A DNA stretch of 62,183 bases, taken from contig NZ_JANKOF010000019.1 in NCBI RefSeq assembly GCF_024655565.1, forward strand, positions 1 to 62,183, given 5' to 3'. Both the position numbers and the translations under genes were made by a program. Positions 9,172-14,052 of this stretch are shown piece after piece (positions within the stretch are counted from its first letter, which is position 1; every line of letters begins with the position of its first letter). This stretch comes from Nitratireductor sp. ZSWI3 (lineage in GTDB: Bacteria > Pseudomonadota > Alphaproteobacteria > Rhizobiales > Rhizobiaceae). The notes below the pieces were generated by a model that did not search any database, was not told the origin of the DNA, and saw only the letters and a program-made list of their open reading frames with translations.

Positions 9172-9450
9172 GTGACGACATTCGACAAGGTTGCCGACAT
9201 CATCGCCGAGACGAGCGAGATCGACCGCGAGAAAATCACGCCAGAAAGCCACACGATCGACGATCTGGGCATCGACAGTCTGGATTTCCTGGACATCGTC
9301 TTTGCCATCGACAAGGAATTCGGCATCAAGGTTCCGCTCGAGAAGTGGACGCAGGAGGTCAATGACGGCAAGGTCTCGACCGAAGAATACTTCGTCATGA
9401 AGAATCTTTGCGCCAAGATCGACGATCTGGTCGCGGCGAAGGCTGCCTGA
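9172..9450 (+). CDS. acpXL: Acyl carrier protein AcpXL for very-long-chain fatty acids of lipid A
   Basis: 92 residues starting at a GTG. Phosphopantetheine attaches at Ser36 in '[12 protein letters not shown]'. The stretches '[20 protein letters not shown]' and '[18 protein letters not shown]' are specific to AcpXL rather than housekeeping AcpP. In Rhizobium it carries the 27-hydroxyoctacosanoyl chain that LpxXL transfers to lipid A. It is the first gene of the operon that continues with the two fabF-XL genes, adhXL and lpxXL. A weak ribosome site (CGAGGG) lies 7 bases upstream. Confidence 0.96.
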
Positions 9451-9489
9451 GTTCTTGCCTGCATCTGAAGCAGTATCGACGAGGATAGG

Positions 9490-10677
9490 ATGAGCCCACG
9501 CGACGTTGTCATCACCGGCATGGGCATCGTCTCCTCGCTCGGCGAAGGGGTCGACGCCCATTGGCAGGCCCTCACGGCCGCCCCGCCCTCTCCCGTGCTC
9601 GACCGCGAGCGCTTCGCGCCCTACATGATCCATCCCCTGCCGGAGATCGACTGGAGTCGGCAGATCCCGCGCCGTGGCGACCAGCGGCAGATGGAGACAT
9701 GGCAGCGGCTCGGCACCTATGCCGCCGGGCTGGCGCTCGACGATGCCGGCCTGAAGGAGAACGAGGGCCTGTGCGCTTCGATGGACATGGTCGTGGCGGC
9801 GGGCGGCGGCGAGCGTGACGAGACCGTCGACGAGGTGATCCTCAACGCTTCCCTGGCGCGCAACGACCAGGACGTGCTGCTCAACGAAAAGCTCACCACC
9901 GAGCTTCGCCCGACGCTGTTCCTCGCCCAGCTTTCCAACCTGCTCGCCGGCAACATCTCCATCGTCCACAAGGTGACGGGCTCGTCGCGCACCTTCATGG
10001 GCGAGGAAGGCGCCGGCGTCTCGGCCATCGAGACCGCGGCGGCGCGCATCCGCGCCGGACAGTCCTCGCACATTCTGGTGGGCGGTGCCTTCCAGACCGA
10101 GCATTCCGACATGCTGCTCGCCTACGAGCTGGCCGGCTTCCTGCACCGCCAGGACTGGAAGCCGGTGTGGCAGCGCGGCGGCTCGCAAGGCGGCGGCGTG
10201 GTCACCGGCTCGGGCGCCGCCTTCCTCGTCCTGGAAGCGCGTGAACACGCCGAAAAACGGGGCCGTGAGGCCTATGCGGCGATCGGACCCGTGGTCTCGC
10301 GCCGCGTGCGGCGCAACCGCGAACCGCTGGCCGAGGGCATCGCGGCGATGCTCGACGCGCTCTCCCTGCCTGAAGGGCCGCTGCTCACCGTTTCTGGCGC
10401 CTCCGGCGCCCACGCGCCGACCAAGGCGGAGGCGGAAGCATTGGGCACGCGCGGCACGCCCGTCGTGCGCGGGTTCTCCACGCTGACCGGACACATGAAG
10501 GAAGCGCAGTTCCCGTTTGCCGTGGCGCTGGCCGCGCTGGCCGTCCACCACGGCAAACCCTATCCCGCTTTCGATCCGCAGAACGAGGCGGCGTTCGAGG
10601 GGGCCCCGCAGGCTGCGCTGGCGACGGCGATCGGGTATCATTGCTTTGAAGGAATGGGGCTCGTCACCAAGGCCTGA
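9490..10677 (+). CDS. fabF2XL: FabF2XL: ketosynthase-fold protein lacking the catalytic Cys (chain-length-factor-like)
   Basis: 395 residues with the thiolase/ketosynthase fold: N-terminal 'DVVITGMGIVSSLGEGVDAH', the central 'AAARIRAGQSSHILVGGAF' and C-terminal 'TLTGHMKEAQFP'. When aligned to FabF through the following helix and the GG turn, the nucleophile position holds Glu173 ('FMGEEGAGVSAI'), not Cys. The first catalytic His position ('NAHGTST' in FabF) reads 'SGASGAH' (Gly303 in my alignment). The second His (His335) remains. It is therefore unlikely to condense acyl chains alone and may pair with FabF1XL, encoded next. Gene identity rests on order in the acpXL cluster; the start ATG has GAGGA about 4 bases upstream. 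Confidence 0.9.
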   Translation: MSPRDVVITGMGIVSSLGEGVDAHWQALTAAPPSPVLDRERFAPYMIHPLPEIDWSRQIPRRGDQRQMETWQRLGTYAAGLALDDAGLKENEGLCASMDMVVAAGGGERDETVDEVILNASLARNDQDVLLNEKLTTELRPTLFLAQLSNLLAGNISIVHKVTGSSRTFMGEEGAGVSAIETAAARIRAGQSSHILVGGAFQTEHSDMLLAYELAGFLHRQDWKPVWQRGGSQGGGVVTGSGAAFLVLEAREHAEKRGREAYAAIGPVVSRRVRRNREPLAEGIAAMLDALSLPEGPLLTVSGASGAHAPTKAEAEALGTRGTPVVRGFSTLTGHMKEAQFPFAVALAALAVHHGKPYPAFDPQNEAAFEGAPQAALATAIGYHCFEGMGLVTKA

Positions 10678-10711
10678 GCCGGCTTGCCCCGCAGGATAAG
10701 AGATCGATCAG

Positions 10712-11980
10712 GTGAAAACGACCGACAGTTTTGGAAGACCCGTGGTTGCCGTGACCGGCATGGGCGTCGTCACGTCGCTCGGACAGGGGCGAGAGGACAA
10801 TTGGAACGCGCTGATCGGCGGCCGCTCCGGCATCCATCCGATCACGCGGTTTCCGGTCGACCATCTGGCGACGACCATCGCCGGCACGGTCGATTTCCTG
10901 CCGTCGAGCCGGGATGGCGCCAGCGCCCTCACCTTCGAGCTCGCCGATCTCGCCGCCTCAGAAGCGGTGGGGCAATCGTGCCTTCCCGGGAGCGATTTCG
11001 GCGGCCCGCTGTTCCTGGCGGCCCCGCCCGTGGAGCTCGACTGGCGCCATCGCCTGTCGCTCTATGCGGGAGCCAGAGAGCACAACGGCAACAAGAGCCT
11101 GATCGAAGCCGCGCGCATCGCCAAGGCGATCGAGCTGTTCGACGAAAGCCAGTTCGCAACGATCGCCGACAGGCTGGCCGACAGGTTCGGCACGCGCGGC
11201 CTGCCGATCACGCTGTCGACCGCCTGCGCGTCCGGCGCGACGGCGATCCAGCTCGGCATCGAGGCGATCCGCCGCGGCGAGTGCGAGCGCGCGCTGTCGA
11301 TCGGCGCCGACGGCTCGGCGACCGCCGAGGCGCTGATCCGCTTCTCGCTGCTTTCGGCCCTGACCACGCAGAACGAATTTCCCGAAAAGGCCTCGCGCCC
11401 CTTCTCCAAGGATCGCAGCGGCTTCGTGCTGGCCGAGGGGGCCGGCGCGCTGGTGCTCGAATCGCTCGACAGCGCGCTGGCCCGCGGCGCCGAGATTCTC
11501 GGCATCATGCGCGGCTGCGGCGAGAAGGCCGACGACTTCCACCGCACCCGCTCCAAGCCGGACGGCTCGCCGGCGATCGCCGCCGTGCGGGCGGCGCTTT
11601 CCGATGCCGGCATGGCCGAGGACGCGGTCGAGTACATCAACGCGCACGGCACCTCGACGCCGGAAAACGACAAGATGGAGCATCTGTCCCTGTCGACGGT
11701 TTTCGGCGAGCGCATCAAGTCCGTGCCGATCTCCTCCAACAAGTCGATGATCGGACACACGCTGTCGGCGGCCGGCGCCGTCGAGGCCGTCTTCTCGATC
11801 ATGACGATGCGCGAGGGCGTCATTCCGCCGACCATCAACTACGACACGCCCGATCCGGCGATCGAGCTCGACGTGGTGCCGAACGTCAAGCGCCAGGCCC
11901 AGGTCTCGACCGTGCTGTCGAACTCCTTCGGCTTCGGCGGGCAGAACACCTGCCTTGTCATGGCGCGCGAACCGGAATGA
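10712..11980 (+). CDS. fabF1XL: FabF1XL: beta-ketoacyl-ACP synthase for VLCFA elongation
   Basis: 422 residues beginning at GTG, 34 bases after fabF2XL. The full ketosynthase set is present: Cys172 in 'LSTACASGATAIQ', His312 in 'INAHGTSTPENDK', Lys344 and His349 in 'SNKSMIGHTLSAAG'. Expected role: elongation on AcpXL towards the C28 chain of lipid A, in the cytoplasm. The family is FabF/KAS II. The partner encoded just upstream has lost the same residues, which suggests a heterodimer. A long intercistronic inverted repeat (11992-12061) follows the stop codon. Confidence 0.94.
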   Translation: MKTTDSFGRPVVAVTGMGVVTSLGQGREDNWNALIGGRSGIHPITRFPVDHLATTIAGTVDFLPSSRDGASALTFELADLAASEAVGQSCLPGSDFGGPLFLAAPPVELDWRHRLSLYAGAREHNGNKSLIEAARIAKAIELFDESQFATIADRLADRFGTRGLPITLSTACASGATAIQLGIEAIRRGECERALSIGADGSATAEALIRFSLLSALTTQNEFPEKASRPFSKDRSGFVLAEGAGALVLESLDSALARGAEILGIMRGCGEKADDFHRTRSKPDGSPAIAAVRAALSDAGMAEDAVEYINAHGTSTPENDKMEHLSLSTVFGERIKSVPISSNKSMIGHTLSAAGAVEAVFSIMTMREGVIPPTINYDTPDPAIELDVVPNVKRQAQVSTVLSNSFGFGGQNTCLVMAREPE

Positions 11981-12094: not shown

Positions 12095-13123
12095 ATGCGC
12101 GCATTGCAACTCGTCGCGGACCGGAAGCTCGAAACCGTCGATCTTGCGCCGCCTCCGCCGCCCGGCCAAGGCGAAGTGACGCTGAGGATTCGCGCCGTGG
12201 CGCTGAACCACATCGACGTGTGGGGCTGGCGCGGCATGGCGTTCGCCAAGCGCAAGATGCCGCTGGTGGTCGGAGCCGAGGCATCCGGAGAGGTCGAGGC
12301 GGTCGGCCCCGGGGTCGGCAATCTCCTGCCGGGGCAGCTGGTCTCCATCTACGGTGCGCGCACCTGCGGCCTGTGCCGTCCCTGCCGCGAGGGACGCGAC
12401 AATCTGTGCGAGCACGTCTCAGGCGTCCACGGCTTCCACCTCGACGGTTTTGCGCAGGAGAAGATCAACCTGCCGGCGCGGCTCCTGGTGCCCGCCCCGC
12501 CCGGCGTCGACGAGATCGGCGCGGCGGTGGCCCCCGTCACCTTCGGCACGGTCGAGCACATGCTGTTCGACAACGCCAGGCTGGAGCCGGGGGAAACGAT
12601 CCTCATCCAGGCCGGCGGCTCCGGCATCGGCTCGGCGGCGATCCAGCTCGCCAAGCGCATGGGCTGCACCGTCATCACCACGGTCGGCTCGAACGACAAG
12701 ATCGACAAGGCCAAGGCGCTCGGCGCCGATCACGTCATCAACTACCGCGAGGACCGCTTCGAGGGCGTGGTGCGCAAACTGACCAGGAAGCGCGGCGTCG
12801 ACGTGGTGTTCGAGCATGTCGGCGCCGACACCTGGGCCGGCTCCATGCTGTCGCTGAAACGCGGCGGGCGGCTCGTCACCTGCGGCTCCACCTCCGGCGT
12901 CTCGACCAACATGAACCTCATGCAATTGTTCCAGCAGCAGTTGAAGCTGCTCGGCTCCTTCGGCTGCCGGATGGAGAACATGGCCGACGCCATGCAGAAA
13001 ATGGCCGCGGGCCTCGTCTCCCCCGTGGTCGATACGGTGGTCGGCTTCGACGACATCGACACCGCGCTGGCGCGCATGGAAGGCCGCGACGTGTTCGGCA
13101 AGATCATCCTGCGGATCGCCTGA
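12095..13123 (+). CDS. adh2XL: AdhXL: zinc-containing medium-chain dehydrogenase/reductase of the VLCFA cluster
   Basis: 342 residues of the MDR superfamily. A GroES-like domain holds four Cys of a structural zinc loop (91, 94, 97 and 105 in 'CGLCRPCREGRDNLC'). A Rossmann domain follows with 'IQAGGSGIGSAAIQLAKRMG' (about 169-188). The usual catalytic-zinc Cys near residue 40 is not seen ('LNHIDVWGW'), so it may be quinone-oxidoreductase- or enoyl-reductase-like rather than a true alcohol dehydrogenase. In the Rhizobium cluster the homologue is proposed to act in VLCFA synthesis. The ATG at 12095 was chosen over an upstream frame that reads through the intercistronic repeat. Confidence 0.9.
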   Translation: MRALQLVADRKLETVDLAPPPPPGQGEVTLRIRAVALNHIDVWGWRGMAFAKRKMPLVVGAEASGEVEAVGPGVGNLLPGQLVSIYGARTCGLCRPCREGRDNLCEHVSGVHGFHLDGFAQEKINLPARLLVPAPPGVDEIGAAVAPVTFGTVEHMLFDNARLEPGETILIQAGGSGIGSAAIQLAKRMGCTVITTVGSNDKIDKAKALGADHVINYREDRFEGVVRKLTRKRGVDVVFEHVGADTWAGSMLSLKRGGRLVTCGSTSGVSTNMNLMQLFQQQLKLLGSFGCRMENMADAMQKMAAGLVSPVVDTVVGFDDIDTALARMEGRDVFGKIILRIA

Positions 13124-13131
13124 CCCGGCAG

Positions 13132-14052
13132 ATGAAGCGCTTCCTCCTCCTTCTCGGCAGGCGGTTGAAGGCCGCGGAATACTGGCTGACAGCTCGCCTC
13201 GTCATCCTGCTTTTAGGCCTTTTGCGTCGCCTCCCGCCGCAAAAGGCGCTGCAGCTGGCCGAGCGGATCGCCCGCCGCGCCGGCCCCTGGGTCGGCCGGC
13301 ACCGGCTCGCCGTCAGCAATCTGCGCCAGGCCTATCCGGAAAAGAGCGACGCCGAGATCGAGACCATCGCCTCGGACATGTGGGCCAACATGGCCCGGCT
13401 CGCCGTCGAATACGTGTTTCTCGACAAGCTGTTCGATTTCGACCCCGACAGCGACAAGCCGGGCCGCGTCGAGGTCTGCGGCATCGACGTGTTCGTCAAG
13501 CTGCGCGAGGAAAAGGGTGTGCCGCACATCTTCTTCACCGCCCATCTCGGCAATTTCGAGTTCCTGCCGATCGCCGCGGCGAAGTTCGGGCTCGAGACCA
13601 CCTCCCTCTTCCGCCCGCCGAACAATCCCTATGTCGCCGACTACATCCTGAGGACTCGCCGCAGCGCCATGGGTGGCCTCGTGCCCTCGCAGGCGGGCGC
13701 TGCCATGCAGCTTGCCCGCGTCCTCGACGAGGGCGGCAATGTCGGCGTGCTGGTGGACCAGAAGTTCCGCAAGGGCGTGCGCACGCACTTCTTCGGCCGC
13801 GCCTGCCGGACCAACCCGCTGGTGCCGAAGCTTGCCCGGCACTATGGCTGCGACGTCTATCCGGCGCGCTGCATCCGCCTGCCCGGCGGGCGCTACCGGC
13901 TGGTGGTGGAGGACAAGATCTCGCTTCCGCGCACCACCGACGGCACCGTCGATGTCGAGGCGGGCGCGCAGATGCTCAACGACATCGTCGAACGCTGGGT
14001 GCGCGAAGACCCGGGCCAGTGGATGTGGTTCCACAAGCGCTGGGCGATGTAG
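13132..14052 (+). CDS. lpxXL: LpxXL: lipid A acyltransferase that adds the very-long-chain fatty acid
   Basis: 306 residues of the LpxL/HtrB family. There is an N-terminal membrane-associating helix (about 15-32) and an HX4E active site at His138-Glu143 ('HLGNFEF'). Later family segments are 'NVGVLVDQKFRKGV' and the C-terminal 'PGQWMWFHKRW'. It should transfer the C28 acyl chain from AcpXL to the lipid A precursor at the inner membrane. It starts 8 bases after adhXL and ends the operon. The assignment to LpxXL over a housekeeping LpxL is from cluster context. Confidence 0.94.
   Translation: MKRFLLLLGRRLKAAEYWLTARLVILLLGLLRRLPPQKALQLAERIARRAGPWVGRHRLAVSNLRQAYPEKSDAEIETIASDMWANMARLAVEYVFLDKLFDFDPDSDKPGRVEVCGIDVFVKLREEKGVPHIFFTAHLGNFEFLPIAAAKFGLETTSLFRPPNNPYVADYILRTRRSAMGGLVPSQAGAAMQLARVLDEGGNVGVLVDQKFRKGVRTHFFGRACRTNPLVPKLARHYGCDVYPARCIRLPGGRYRLVVEDKISLPRTTDGTVDVEAGAQMLNDIVERWVREDPGQWMWFHKRWAM

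What the first reader, a model, noticed from the sequence alone, without database searches (positions are those of the whole stretch)
9490..11980. FabF2XL/FabF1XL look like a ketosynthase plus chain-length-factor pair for the C28 lipid A chain
Aligned through the conserved helix and GG turn, FabF2XL has Glu173 where FabF has its catalytic Cys, and Gly303 at the first catalytic His; only the second His remains. FabF1XL, 34 bases downstream, keeps Cys172, His312, Lys344 and His349. In type II polyketide synthases a Cys-less KS-beta (chain length factor) pairs with an active KS-alpha and sets product length. The same layout here would explain how a fixed C28 chain is made on AcpXL. The functional part is inference.
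Basis: partly seen in the sequence, partly recalled or inferred. Interest (0 to 1): 0.85.

Follow-up and report, generated by a model that had tools for sequence, protein, structure and literature searches.

The report
Split ketosynthase for lipid A chains
In rhizobia and their relatives the enzyme thought to build the very long fatty acid of the outer membrane appears to be split between two paired proteins, one holding the catalytic site and one catalytically dead partner that keeps carrier-docking and interface parts, much like the pairs that make polyketide antibiotics.

Summary
FabF2XL (9490-10677) has Glu173 at the FabF cysteine, Gly303 at the first histidine and Ser330 at the lysine; FabF1XL (10712-11980, 34 nt downstream) keeps the full set. 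It is not local decay: in 406 unique full-length pairs the FabF2XL cysteine site is Glu/Asp in 406 and the first His and Lys are kept in 0; FabF1XL keeps each catalytic residue in at least 405. The genes go together: 447 of 450 FabF2XL gene records have FabF1XL next downstream (two exceptions are contig ends; one genome has it on another contig), and 49 of 49 genomes without FabF2XL lack FabF1XL.

New here: conservation is mirror-image. FabF2XL is most conserved in the carrier-docking helix and the interface block, FabF1XL in the catalytic and gating blocks; ordinary FabF keeps both in one chain. This fits an obligate heterodimer working like a ketosynthase-chain length factor. The complex itself and the setting of a C28 length are untested; descent from polyketide chain length factors is unresolved. 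I found no paper proposing this in the open library.

The parts
9172..9450 (+). acpXL, special acyl carrier protein (GTG start)
   Evidence: NCBIfam NF005079, 185.8 bits, cut-off 83
9490..10677 (+). fabF2XL: KS-like subunit without catalytic residues (proposed CLF-like partner)
   Evidence: NCBIfam NF005084 596.7 bits; Pfam N-terminal KS domain only; KS fold by AF2/Foldseek
9664..9696 (+). FabF2XL residues 59-69, counterpart of the FabF carrier-docking helix (Ec K65/R68); deleted or not basic in FabF1XL
   Evidence: docking residues from PMC7138838
9784..10008 (+). FabF2XL residues 99-173, containing the interface/acyl-tunnel block (Ec 100-162), the most conserved block of the protein
   Evidence: the block's role is recalled from KS structures
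10003..10008 (+). Glu172-Glu173, at Cys-1 and Cys of FabF
10396..10398 (+). Gly303 at first catalytic His
10477..10479 (+). Ser330 at catalytic Lys
10492..10494 (+). His335, retained second His (His in 349 of 406 relatives)
10712..11980 (+). fabF1XL: active ketosynthase subunit (GTG start)
   Evidence: NCBIfam NF005076 736.3 bits, cut-off 629
11225..11227 (+). catalytic Cys172 of FabF1XL
11645..11758 (+). stretch from His312 through Lys344 to His349 of FabF1XL
12095..13123 (+). zinc-binding dehydrogenase (adh2XL); start taken as the ATG at 12095
   Evidence: Pfam PF00107/PF08240; ATG read
13132..14052 (+). lpxXL, lipid A acyltransferase; start taken as the Met at 13132
   Evidence: NCBIfam NF005120 457.6 bits

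Best explanation
FabF1XL and FabF2XL are the two halves of one obligate heterodimeric ketosynthase that elongates the lipid A very long acyl chain on AcpXL. FabF1XL carries the whole catalytic and gating apparatus. FabF2XL is catalytically dead but keeps part of the surface on which, in FabF, the carrier protein docks to serve the partner's active site, and the interface block through which the acyl chain passes. AcpXL would dock mainly on FabF2XL, deliver to FabF1XL Cys172, and the growing chain would run across the interface into the vacated FabF2XL pocket, which could limit its length. Shown here: loss of catalysis, universality in the sample, tight pairing, mirror-image conservation. Inferred: the physical heterodimer, AcpXL docking on FabF2XL, the tunnel. 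Weakly supported: length setting.
For: (1) Cys site E402/D4, first His 0, Lys 0 of 406 FabF2XL; FabF1XL C405 (+1 X), H405 (+1 R), K406, H406, gate F406. (2) 447 of 450 FabF2XL gene records (some loci fetched twice; 414 unique pairs) have FabF1XL as the next KS gene downstream, gap median 34 and at most 339 nt in the 406; two exceptions are contig ends, the third genome has FabF1XL on another contig. (3) 49 of 49 genomes without FabF2XL have no FabF1XL (best <=275.5 bits against 644.8-773.3 in four positives). (4) The five loci fetched with two copies repeat both genes (L227, L230, L231, L237, L257); a Bradyrhizobium conjugative plasmid carries the pair with no acpXL or lpxXL annotated in the 15 kb viewed (L325). 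(5) Mirror conservation, median entropy: docking helix F2 0.41, F1 1.81; interface block F2 0.23, F1 1.61; His1 loop F2 1.03, F1 0.02; Lys/His2 F2 1.43, F1 0.09. In 54 ordinary FabF-like controls docking and catalytic residues sit in one chain. (6) Ec65 is K/R in 393 and Ec68 R/K in 404 of 406 FabF2XL; FabF1XL has a gap at 65 in 406. In the FabF-AcpP complex most contacts come from the monomer not linked to that AcpP (PMC7138838). (7) Inter-protein covariation: acid F1-128 with base F2-206, independent contrasts 10:0; acid F1-153 with F2-R272 7:0. (8) dN/dS of FabF2XL 0.09-0.20 against five relatives. (9) An A. fabrum fabF2XL insertion mutant lacks VLCFA and fabF2XL alone complements in part (PMC11901934, passages).
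Against: No complex was modelled or measured. Docking residues are kept only in part: Ec K69 is Gln in 395 of 406 FabF2XL, and the second patch (R127, K128, R206) is mostly T/S/N, D/E and G. One incomplete genome (G1025, 72%) has FabF1XL at a contig edge with no FabF2XL found. The absence of FabF2XL in the 39 genomes of the order rests on a search that scored at most four candidates per genome. Covariation pairs were picked after the fact; the top-ranked one (F1-164/F2-178) has only 2:0 independent contrasts, and no coordinates were at hand to check that pairs touch. The A. fabrum mutant may be polar on fabF1XL. Alignment of FabF1XL in the 100-162 block is uncertain, and block borders were chosen by me. 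The window's own lipid A is unknown.
Confidence: 0.77

Rival explanations
1. FabF2XL is a stand-alone KSQ-like malonyl-AcpXL decarboxylase that supplies a primer, acting as its own homodimer.
For: A carboxyl side chain sits at the nucleophile site, and FabF C163Q structures are among its fold neighbours, as are many other FabF structures.
Against: First His lost in 406 of 406, Lys in 406, second His in 57; loop 2 residues 269-271 deleted in 406 and the Phe gate kept in 20 of 406. Recalled: decarboxylation by Cys-to-Gln KSs relies on the His pair. Does not explain co-occurrence with FabF1XL.
Confidence: 0.06
2. Two independent homodimeric enzymes, FabF2XL having an unusual Glu-based or wholly new activity built on its invariant polar residues (E108, R109, D110, R140, E172, E173, E338).
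For: R109 406, D110 404, R140 404, E172 404, E108 400, E338 395 of 406 are conserved beyond need for a passive filler.
Against: The blocks that hold catalysis and gating in FabF are poorly conserved in FabF2XL; FabF1XL alone would lack the basic docking residues; pairing is tight.
Confidence: 0.1
3. FabF2XL is a decaying pseudogene.
For: Active site lost.
Against: Open frame and conserved in 406 unique pairs; dN/dS 0.09-0.20; mutant phenotype in A. fabrum and failure to obtain mutants in Bradyrhizobium (PMC11901934, PMC5613085, passages).
Confidence: 0.01
4. FabF2XL belongs by descent to the polyketide chain length factors (one ancient KS/CLF duplication) rather than having arisen separately. 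This can be true together with the best explanation.
For: Best trees group FabF2XL with CLFs at 80/92 and 84/91; Glu just before the Cys site is shared with all three annotated full-length CLFs and with 3 of 5 when two unannotated full-length neighbours of a KS are counted.
Against: Support is not strong, long branches meet, and FabF1XL+FabF2XL as sisters is not rejected (AU p 0.17). By sequence FabF structures match FabF2XL far better (6e-17) than the CLF chains 6smo_C (8.7e-6) and 1tqy_B (8.2e-5). CLFs keep the Pfam C-terminal KS domain, FabF2XL does not.
Confidence: 0.35

Closest known systems
Type II polyketide KSalpha-CLF (KSbeta) heterodimers: Streptomyces pairs L319, L320, L329; actinorhodin 1TQY
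   Same: Adjacent genes for an active KS and a KS-fold partner without the Cys; Glu at Cys-1 in these three annotated CLFs as in FabF2XL.
   Different: These CLFs have Q or G at the Cys, D at the first His and keep the Lys; the two tested (L319, L320) keep the Pfam C-terminal domain. FabF2XL has Glu, Gly/Ala, no Lys, no C-terminal domain match. KSalpha comes first in those operons, FabF2XL first here. The product here is a saturated lipid A acyl chain (recalled and PMC11901934).
Aryl polyene ApeO-ApeC KS-CLF
   Same: KS with a dead partner outside actinobacteria; ApeC Arg30/Arg31 proposed to contact carrier protein (PMC8358021, Results part 1).
   Different: ApeC is half size (one thiolase domain; 240 aa in E. 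coli CFT073) and lies about 9 kb from the KS taken as ApeO (the names ApeO and ApeR were assigned by me from recall); FabF2XL is full length and next to its KS.
FabF (KAS II) homodimer
   Same: Fold (Foldseek top hits 8r1v, 4f32, 1kas); docking helix and interface block in part.
   Different: FabF keeps docking and catalysis in one chain; here they are in two.
Ishigamide Iga11-Iga12 and AntDE KS-CLF
   Same: Chains of these KS-CLF structures (6kxd_A, 6smp_K, 6smp_B) are among the first 50 fold neighbours of FabF2XL; 6kxd_A is the ketosynthase chain.
   Different: The listed neighbours are not CLF chains as far as their names show; products are polyketides; not compared in sequence detail here.

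Membership tests
KS-CLF heterodimer (as a way of working) | KS-fold subunit without the Cys nucleophile | tested here: met
   E402/D4 of 406; KS fold
KS-CLF heterodimer (as a way of working) | Genetic pairing with an active KS | tested here: met
   447 of 450 adjacent; 49 of 49 absent together; one incomplete genome with FabF1XL at a contig edge and no FabF2XL found
KS-CLF heterodimer (as a way of working) | Physical heterodimer | not testable with these tools
   Only single chains can be modelled; indirect support from mirror conservation and covariation
KS-CLF heterodimer (as a way of working) | Dead subunit sets chain length | not tested
   Needs enzymology; orthologous pairs occur in Agrobacterium (C28) and Bradyrhizobium (C26, C30)
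Polyketide CLF family (by descent) | Groups with CLFs in a tree | tested here: inconclusive
   80/92 and 84/91 support; alternative not rejected
Polyketide CLF family (by descent) | Gln (or Gly) at Cys site, KS C-terminal domain retained | tested here: not met
   Glu at the site; no PF02801 match in three FabF2XL, while three full-length CLFs (one of them unannotated, Azospirillum) match
FabF / KAS II | Cys-His-Lys-His active site; score above TIGR03150 cut-off | tested here: not met
   FabF2XL 86.1 bits against 493.75; residues lost
KSQ decarboxylase | Gln at Cys with both His kept (definition recalled) | tested here: not met
   Glu/Asp; first His 0 of 406

The most novel reading that the evidence does not exclude
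A ketosynthase of outer-membrane lipid metabolism has been split so that carrier docking and the chain tunnel lie on a dead subunit and catalysis on its partner. Each dimer then serves a single AcpXL-fed active site, and the second, gutted pocket is turned into room for a 26-30 carbon tail. This KS-CLF arrangement may have arisen independently of the polyketide ones.
Probability: 0.4. Interest if true: 0.82.

Novelty: new variant of a known kind. Interest (0 to 1): 0.72.

Why it matters
Lipid A with a very long chain marks rhizobia, Agrobacterium and (recalled) Brucella and Bartonella. In the passages read I saw no mechanism for how a type II fatty acid system reaches C26-C30. If the pair is a heterodimer, naming FabF2XL a beta-ketoacyl-ACP synthase (NF005084) is misleading wherever that model is applied, earlier mutants gain a simple explanation, chain length becomes testable by swapping one subunit, and the KS-CLF principle extends from secondary metabolites to core envelope lipids.

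Tried and rejected
Pseudogene or local decay: rejected (406 pairs, dN/dS). KSQ decarboxylase: disfavoured (His, Lys, loop 2 lost). Shared ancestry with CLFs: left open, tree too weak. Before the first tree the half-size ApeC and six pairs (12 rows) were dropped; before the second, four long rows (Eb_KS2, St1243_CLF, St1243_KSa, Azo_CLF).

An alignment-free count (K+R in 22 residues after Ec52) split the two proteins (404 vs 7 of 406 with three or more), but only 19 of 54 FabF controls reach it, so I rest on the aligned positions. In one search the FabF1XL numbering was off by two and one FabF column by one; replace it. Pair counts: 447 adjacent pairs, 414 unique, 406 full length (8 shorter ones dropped). 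The coupling run had an effective number of 182 sequences for 571 variable columns; 9 of 40 top pairs and 0 of 160 random pairs gave p<0.05 in independent contrasts, but the top pairs were selected on the same data. Further second copies of fabF2XL seen (G590, G684, G656, G921, G1055) were not fetched, and one (L226) is cut by a contig end.

A fold search with the FabF1XL model was never accepted, so FabF1XL's fold rests on its sequence and AF2 confidence.
Full report
What is there. The window is contig G000:C19 of a draft genome whose four nearest named FabF2XL matches are Nitratireductor strains (81-87% identity); that the family is Rhizobiaceae is inferred from these matches. It holds acpXL (9172-9450), fabF2XL (9490-10677), fabF1XL (10712-11980), a zinc-binding dehydrogenase (12095-13123) and lpxXL (13132-14052), identified by NCBIfam and Pfam. 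FabF1XL has Cys172, His312, Lys344, His349. The gap is 34 nt.

Is it general? In a first set of 50 loci the Cys site was Glu in 50. In the final set of 488 loci scanned, 450 FabF2XL gene records were found (some loci fetched twice) and 406 unique full-length pairs kept: Cys site Glu 402, Asp 4; preceding residue Glu 404; first-His site Gly 358, Ala 36, Ser 9, others 3, never His; Lys site never Lys; second His kept in 349. FabF1XL: Cys 405 and one X, His 405 and one Arg, Lys 406, His 406, gate Phe 406. So the loss is ancestral and fixed in this sample. dN/dS of FabF2XL against five relatives is 0.09-0.20, with dS around 1. Presence: 141 of 151 sampled genomes of the family have a strong match, ten do not; in the class sample 18 of 385 do, with a clear gap between matches of at least 327.9 bits and at most 66.1 bits (at most four candidates per genome were scored).

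Are the two genes a unit? Of 450 FabF2XL records 447 have FabF1XL as the next KS gene on the same strand (only KS genes were looked for, and the gap in the 406 is at most 339 nt). Two of the three exceptions are cut by contig ends; the third (G938, L487) has FabF1XL at 652 bits on another contig. Conversely, of 49 genomes chosen because they lack FabF2XL (10 of the family, 39 of the order), none has FabF1XL: best matches reach 275.5 bits, against 644.8 to 773.3 in four positive genomes. In a further seven genomes four had neither gene, G960 had FabF1XL beside its partial FabF2XL, G938 had both on separate contigs, and G1025, a 72% complete genome, had FabF1XL starting at a contig edge with no FabF2XL found. 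Five loci fetched with two copies repeat both genes (L227, L230, L231, L237, L257); copies are 55-71% (F2) and 65-66% (F1) identical in the three that could be compared. A Bradyrhizobium conjugative plasmid (NZ_CP100605.1) has the pair beside a methyltransferase gene, with no acpXL, fabZ or lpxXL annotated in the 15 kb viewed (the plasmid gene tables are incomplete).

How it probably works. In the crosslinked E. coli complexes most carrier-protein contacts come from the KS monomer that is not linked to it; the FabF contacts are Lys65, Arg68, Lys69 (region 1), Arg127, Lys128, Arg206 (region 2) and residues 129-132 and 205-206 (region 3), with Thr270 of a gating loop (PMC7138838, section read, figure legend). 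In a heterodimer with one active subunit these docking residues are needed mainly on the dead subunit. The sequences show this in part. At Ec65 FabF2XL has K/R in 393 and at Ec68 R/K in 404 of 406; FabF1XL has a deletion at 65 in 406 and mostly Gly/Ser/Cys/Asn at 68 (15 Arg). FabF2XL has invariant Pro and Thr at 131 and 132 and Arg in 404 at 130. Against the idea, Ec69 is Gln in 395 FabF2XL, and region 2 is not kept as basic in either protein. The gating side is reversed: Asp265 405, His268 406, Thr270 406, Phe400 406 in FabF1XL; in FabF2XL positions 269-271 are deleted in 406 and Phe400 remains in 20.

The mirror image holds block by block. Median column entropy (low = conserved), FabF2XL/FabF1XL: docking helix 0.41/1.81, interface block 100-162 0.23/1.61, Cys helix 1.11/0.16, flap 1.51/0.20, loop 2 1.84/0.27, first-His loop 1.03/0.02, Lys/His2 1.43/0.09, gate 1.35/0.20; blocks without a special role are mixed (for example 181-201 0.92/0.82, 76-99 0.92/1.18). 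Block borders and the name of the interface block are mine, from recalled KS structures. In 54 ordinary FabF-like proteins from related genomes the same blocks in the same order give 0.83, 0.55, 0.52, 0.46, 0.49, 0.21, 0.09, 0.31; equal-sized samples give 0.35, 0.22, 1.00, 1.47, 1.78, 0.93, 1.32, 1.27 for FabF2XL and 1.69, 1.45, 0.15, 0.17, 0.27, 0.00, 0.06, 0.22 for FabF1XL. The controls have K/R at 65 in 52, at 68 in 50, at 69 in 49, and Cys in 54 of 54. A functional ketosynthase thus seems shared out between two chains: FabF1XL alone would lack the basic docking helix, FabF2XL alone any catalysis.

Contact between the two. Mean-field coupling analysis of the 406 pairs (effective number 182) ranks inter-protein pairs F1-164/F2-178, F1-128/F2-206 and F1-157/F2-272 at 17, 21 and 23 among all long-range pairs. 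F1-128/F2-206 shows opposite charges at weight 38.4 against 17.3 expected. On a tree without these columns, independent contrasts go 10:0 for acid 128 with base 206, 13:2 for Asp157 with Arg272, 7:0 for acid 153 with Arg272, but only 2:0 for 164/178 and 3:0 for 169/149 (partly cut in view, agrees where seen). Random pairs gave p<0.05 in 0 of 160, the 40 top pairs in 9. These were chosen after the fact and no coordinates were available, so I count them as modest support. AF2 monomers are confident overall (83.2 and 84.5); the only FabF2XL stretch listed under 50 is 155-164, inside the interface block; that this strand pairs across the KS dimer axis is recalled.

Relation to known systems. FabF2XL has the KS fold; its best fold matches are FabF structures, with ketosynthase chains of KS-CLF structures (6kxd_A, 1tqy_A) and chains of 6smp also in the first 50. 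By sequence FabF structures match best (6e-17); the CLF chains 6smo_C and 1tqy_B come near the end of the list. Three annotated Streptomyces chain length factors have E-Q, E-G and E-Q at Cys-1/Cys where FabF2XL has E-E; two further KS neighbours that I counted as CLFs have D-R (Azospirillum) and G-A (Streptomyces). FabF2XL and FabF1XL each form a clade at 100/100. FabF2XL groups with CLFs at 84/91, which is not strong, and the FabF1XL+FabF2XL alternative is not rejected (AU p 0.17). So it works like a KS-CLF; whether it is one by descent is open. NCBIfam names it beta-ketoacyl-ACP synthase (NF005084).

Literature. Full-text searches of the open PMC library for the gene names, AcpXL and chain length factor with lipid A or rhizobia found no paper that proposes this (one search listed 40 of 101 AcpXL papers, of which I saw titles and the beginnings of abstracts). 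Passages of PMC11901934 report that A. fabrum fabF2XL and adh mutants lack VLCFA with partial complementation; passages of PMC5613085 report that acpXL, fabZXL, fabF1XL and fabF2XL mutants could not be obtained in Bradyrhizobium ORS278, whose lipid A holds C26:25OH and C30:29OH. Subscription papers and preprints were not searched.

Limits. No complex, no enzymology, no lipid analysis. The length-setting role is the least supported part, and the C28 of the finding's title is taken from other species.

Noticed in passing
window 9451-9489: No fabZXL between acpXL and fabF2XL, unlike S. meliloti (L324). PMC7663294 (table note) says M. loti lacks it too and uses housekeeping FabZ; the own genome has two FabA/FabZ-type matches elsewhere.
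   Followed up: partly
L325 6231-9486: Conjugative Bradyrhizobium plasmid carries a methyltransferase gene plus the fabF2XL-fabF1XL pair without the rest of the lipid A cluster annotated nearby: possibly a different long-chain product.
   Followed up: no
L227, L230, L231, L237, L257: Two fabF2XL-fabF1XL pairs close together, copies only 55-71% identical in the three loci compared; such genomes may make two VLCFAs.
   Followed up: partly
L487 and G938:C285: One genome where fabF2XL and fabF1XL lie on different contigs (split operon or assembly break).
   Followed up: partly
window 9490-10677, NCBIfam NF005084: The model names a protein without the ketosynthase Cys, first His or Lys as beta-ketoacyl-ACP synthase; it matched both FabF2XL proteins tested against it.
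   Followed up: partly
FabF2XL residues 108-110, 140, 172-173, 338: Near-invariant charged cluster (E108 R109 D110 R140 E172 E173 E338) whose purpose is unexplained; buried salt bridges or a new site.
   Followed up: no
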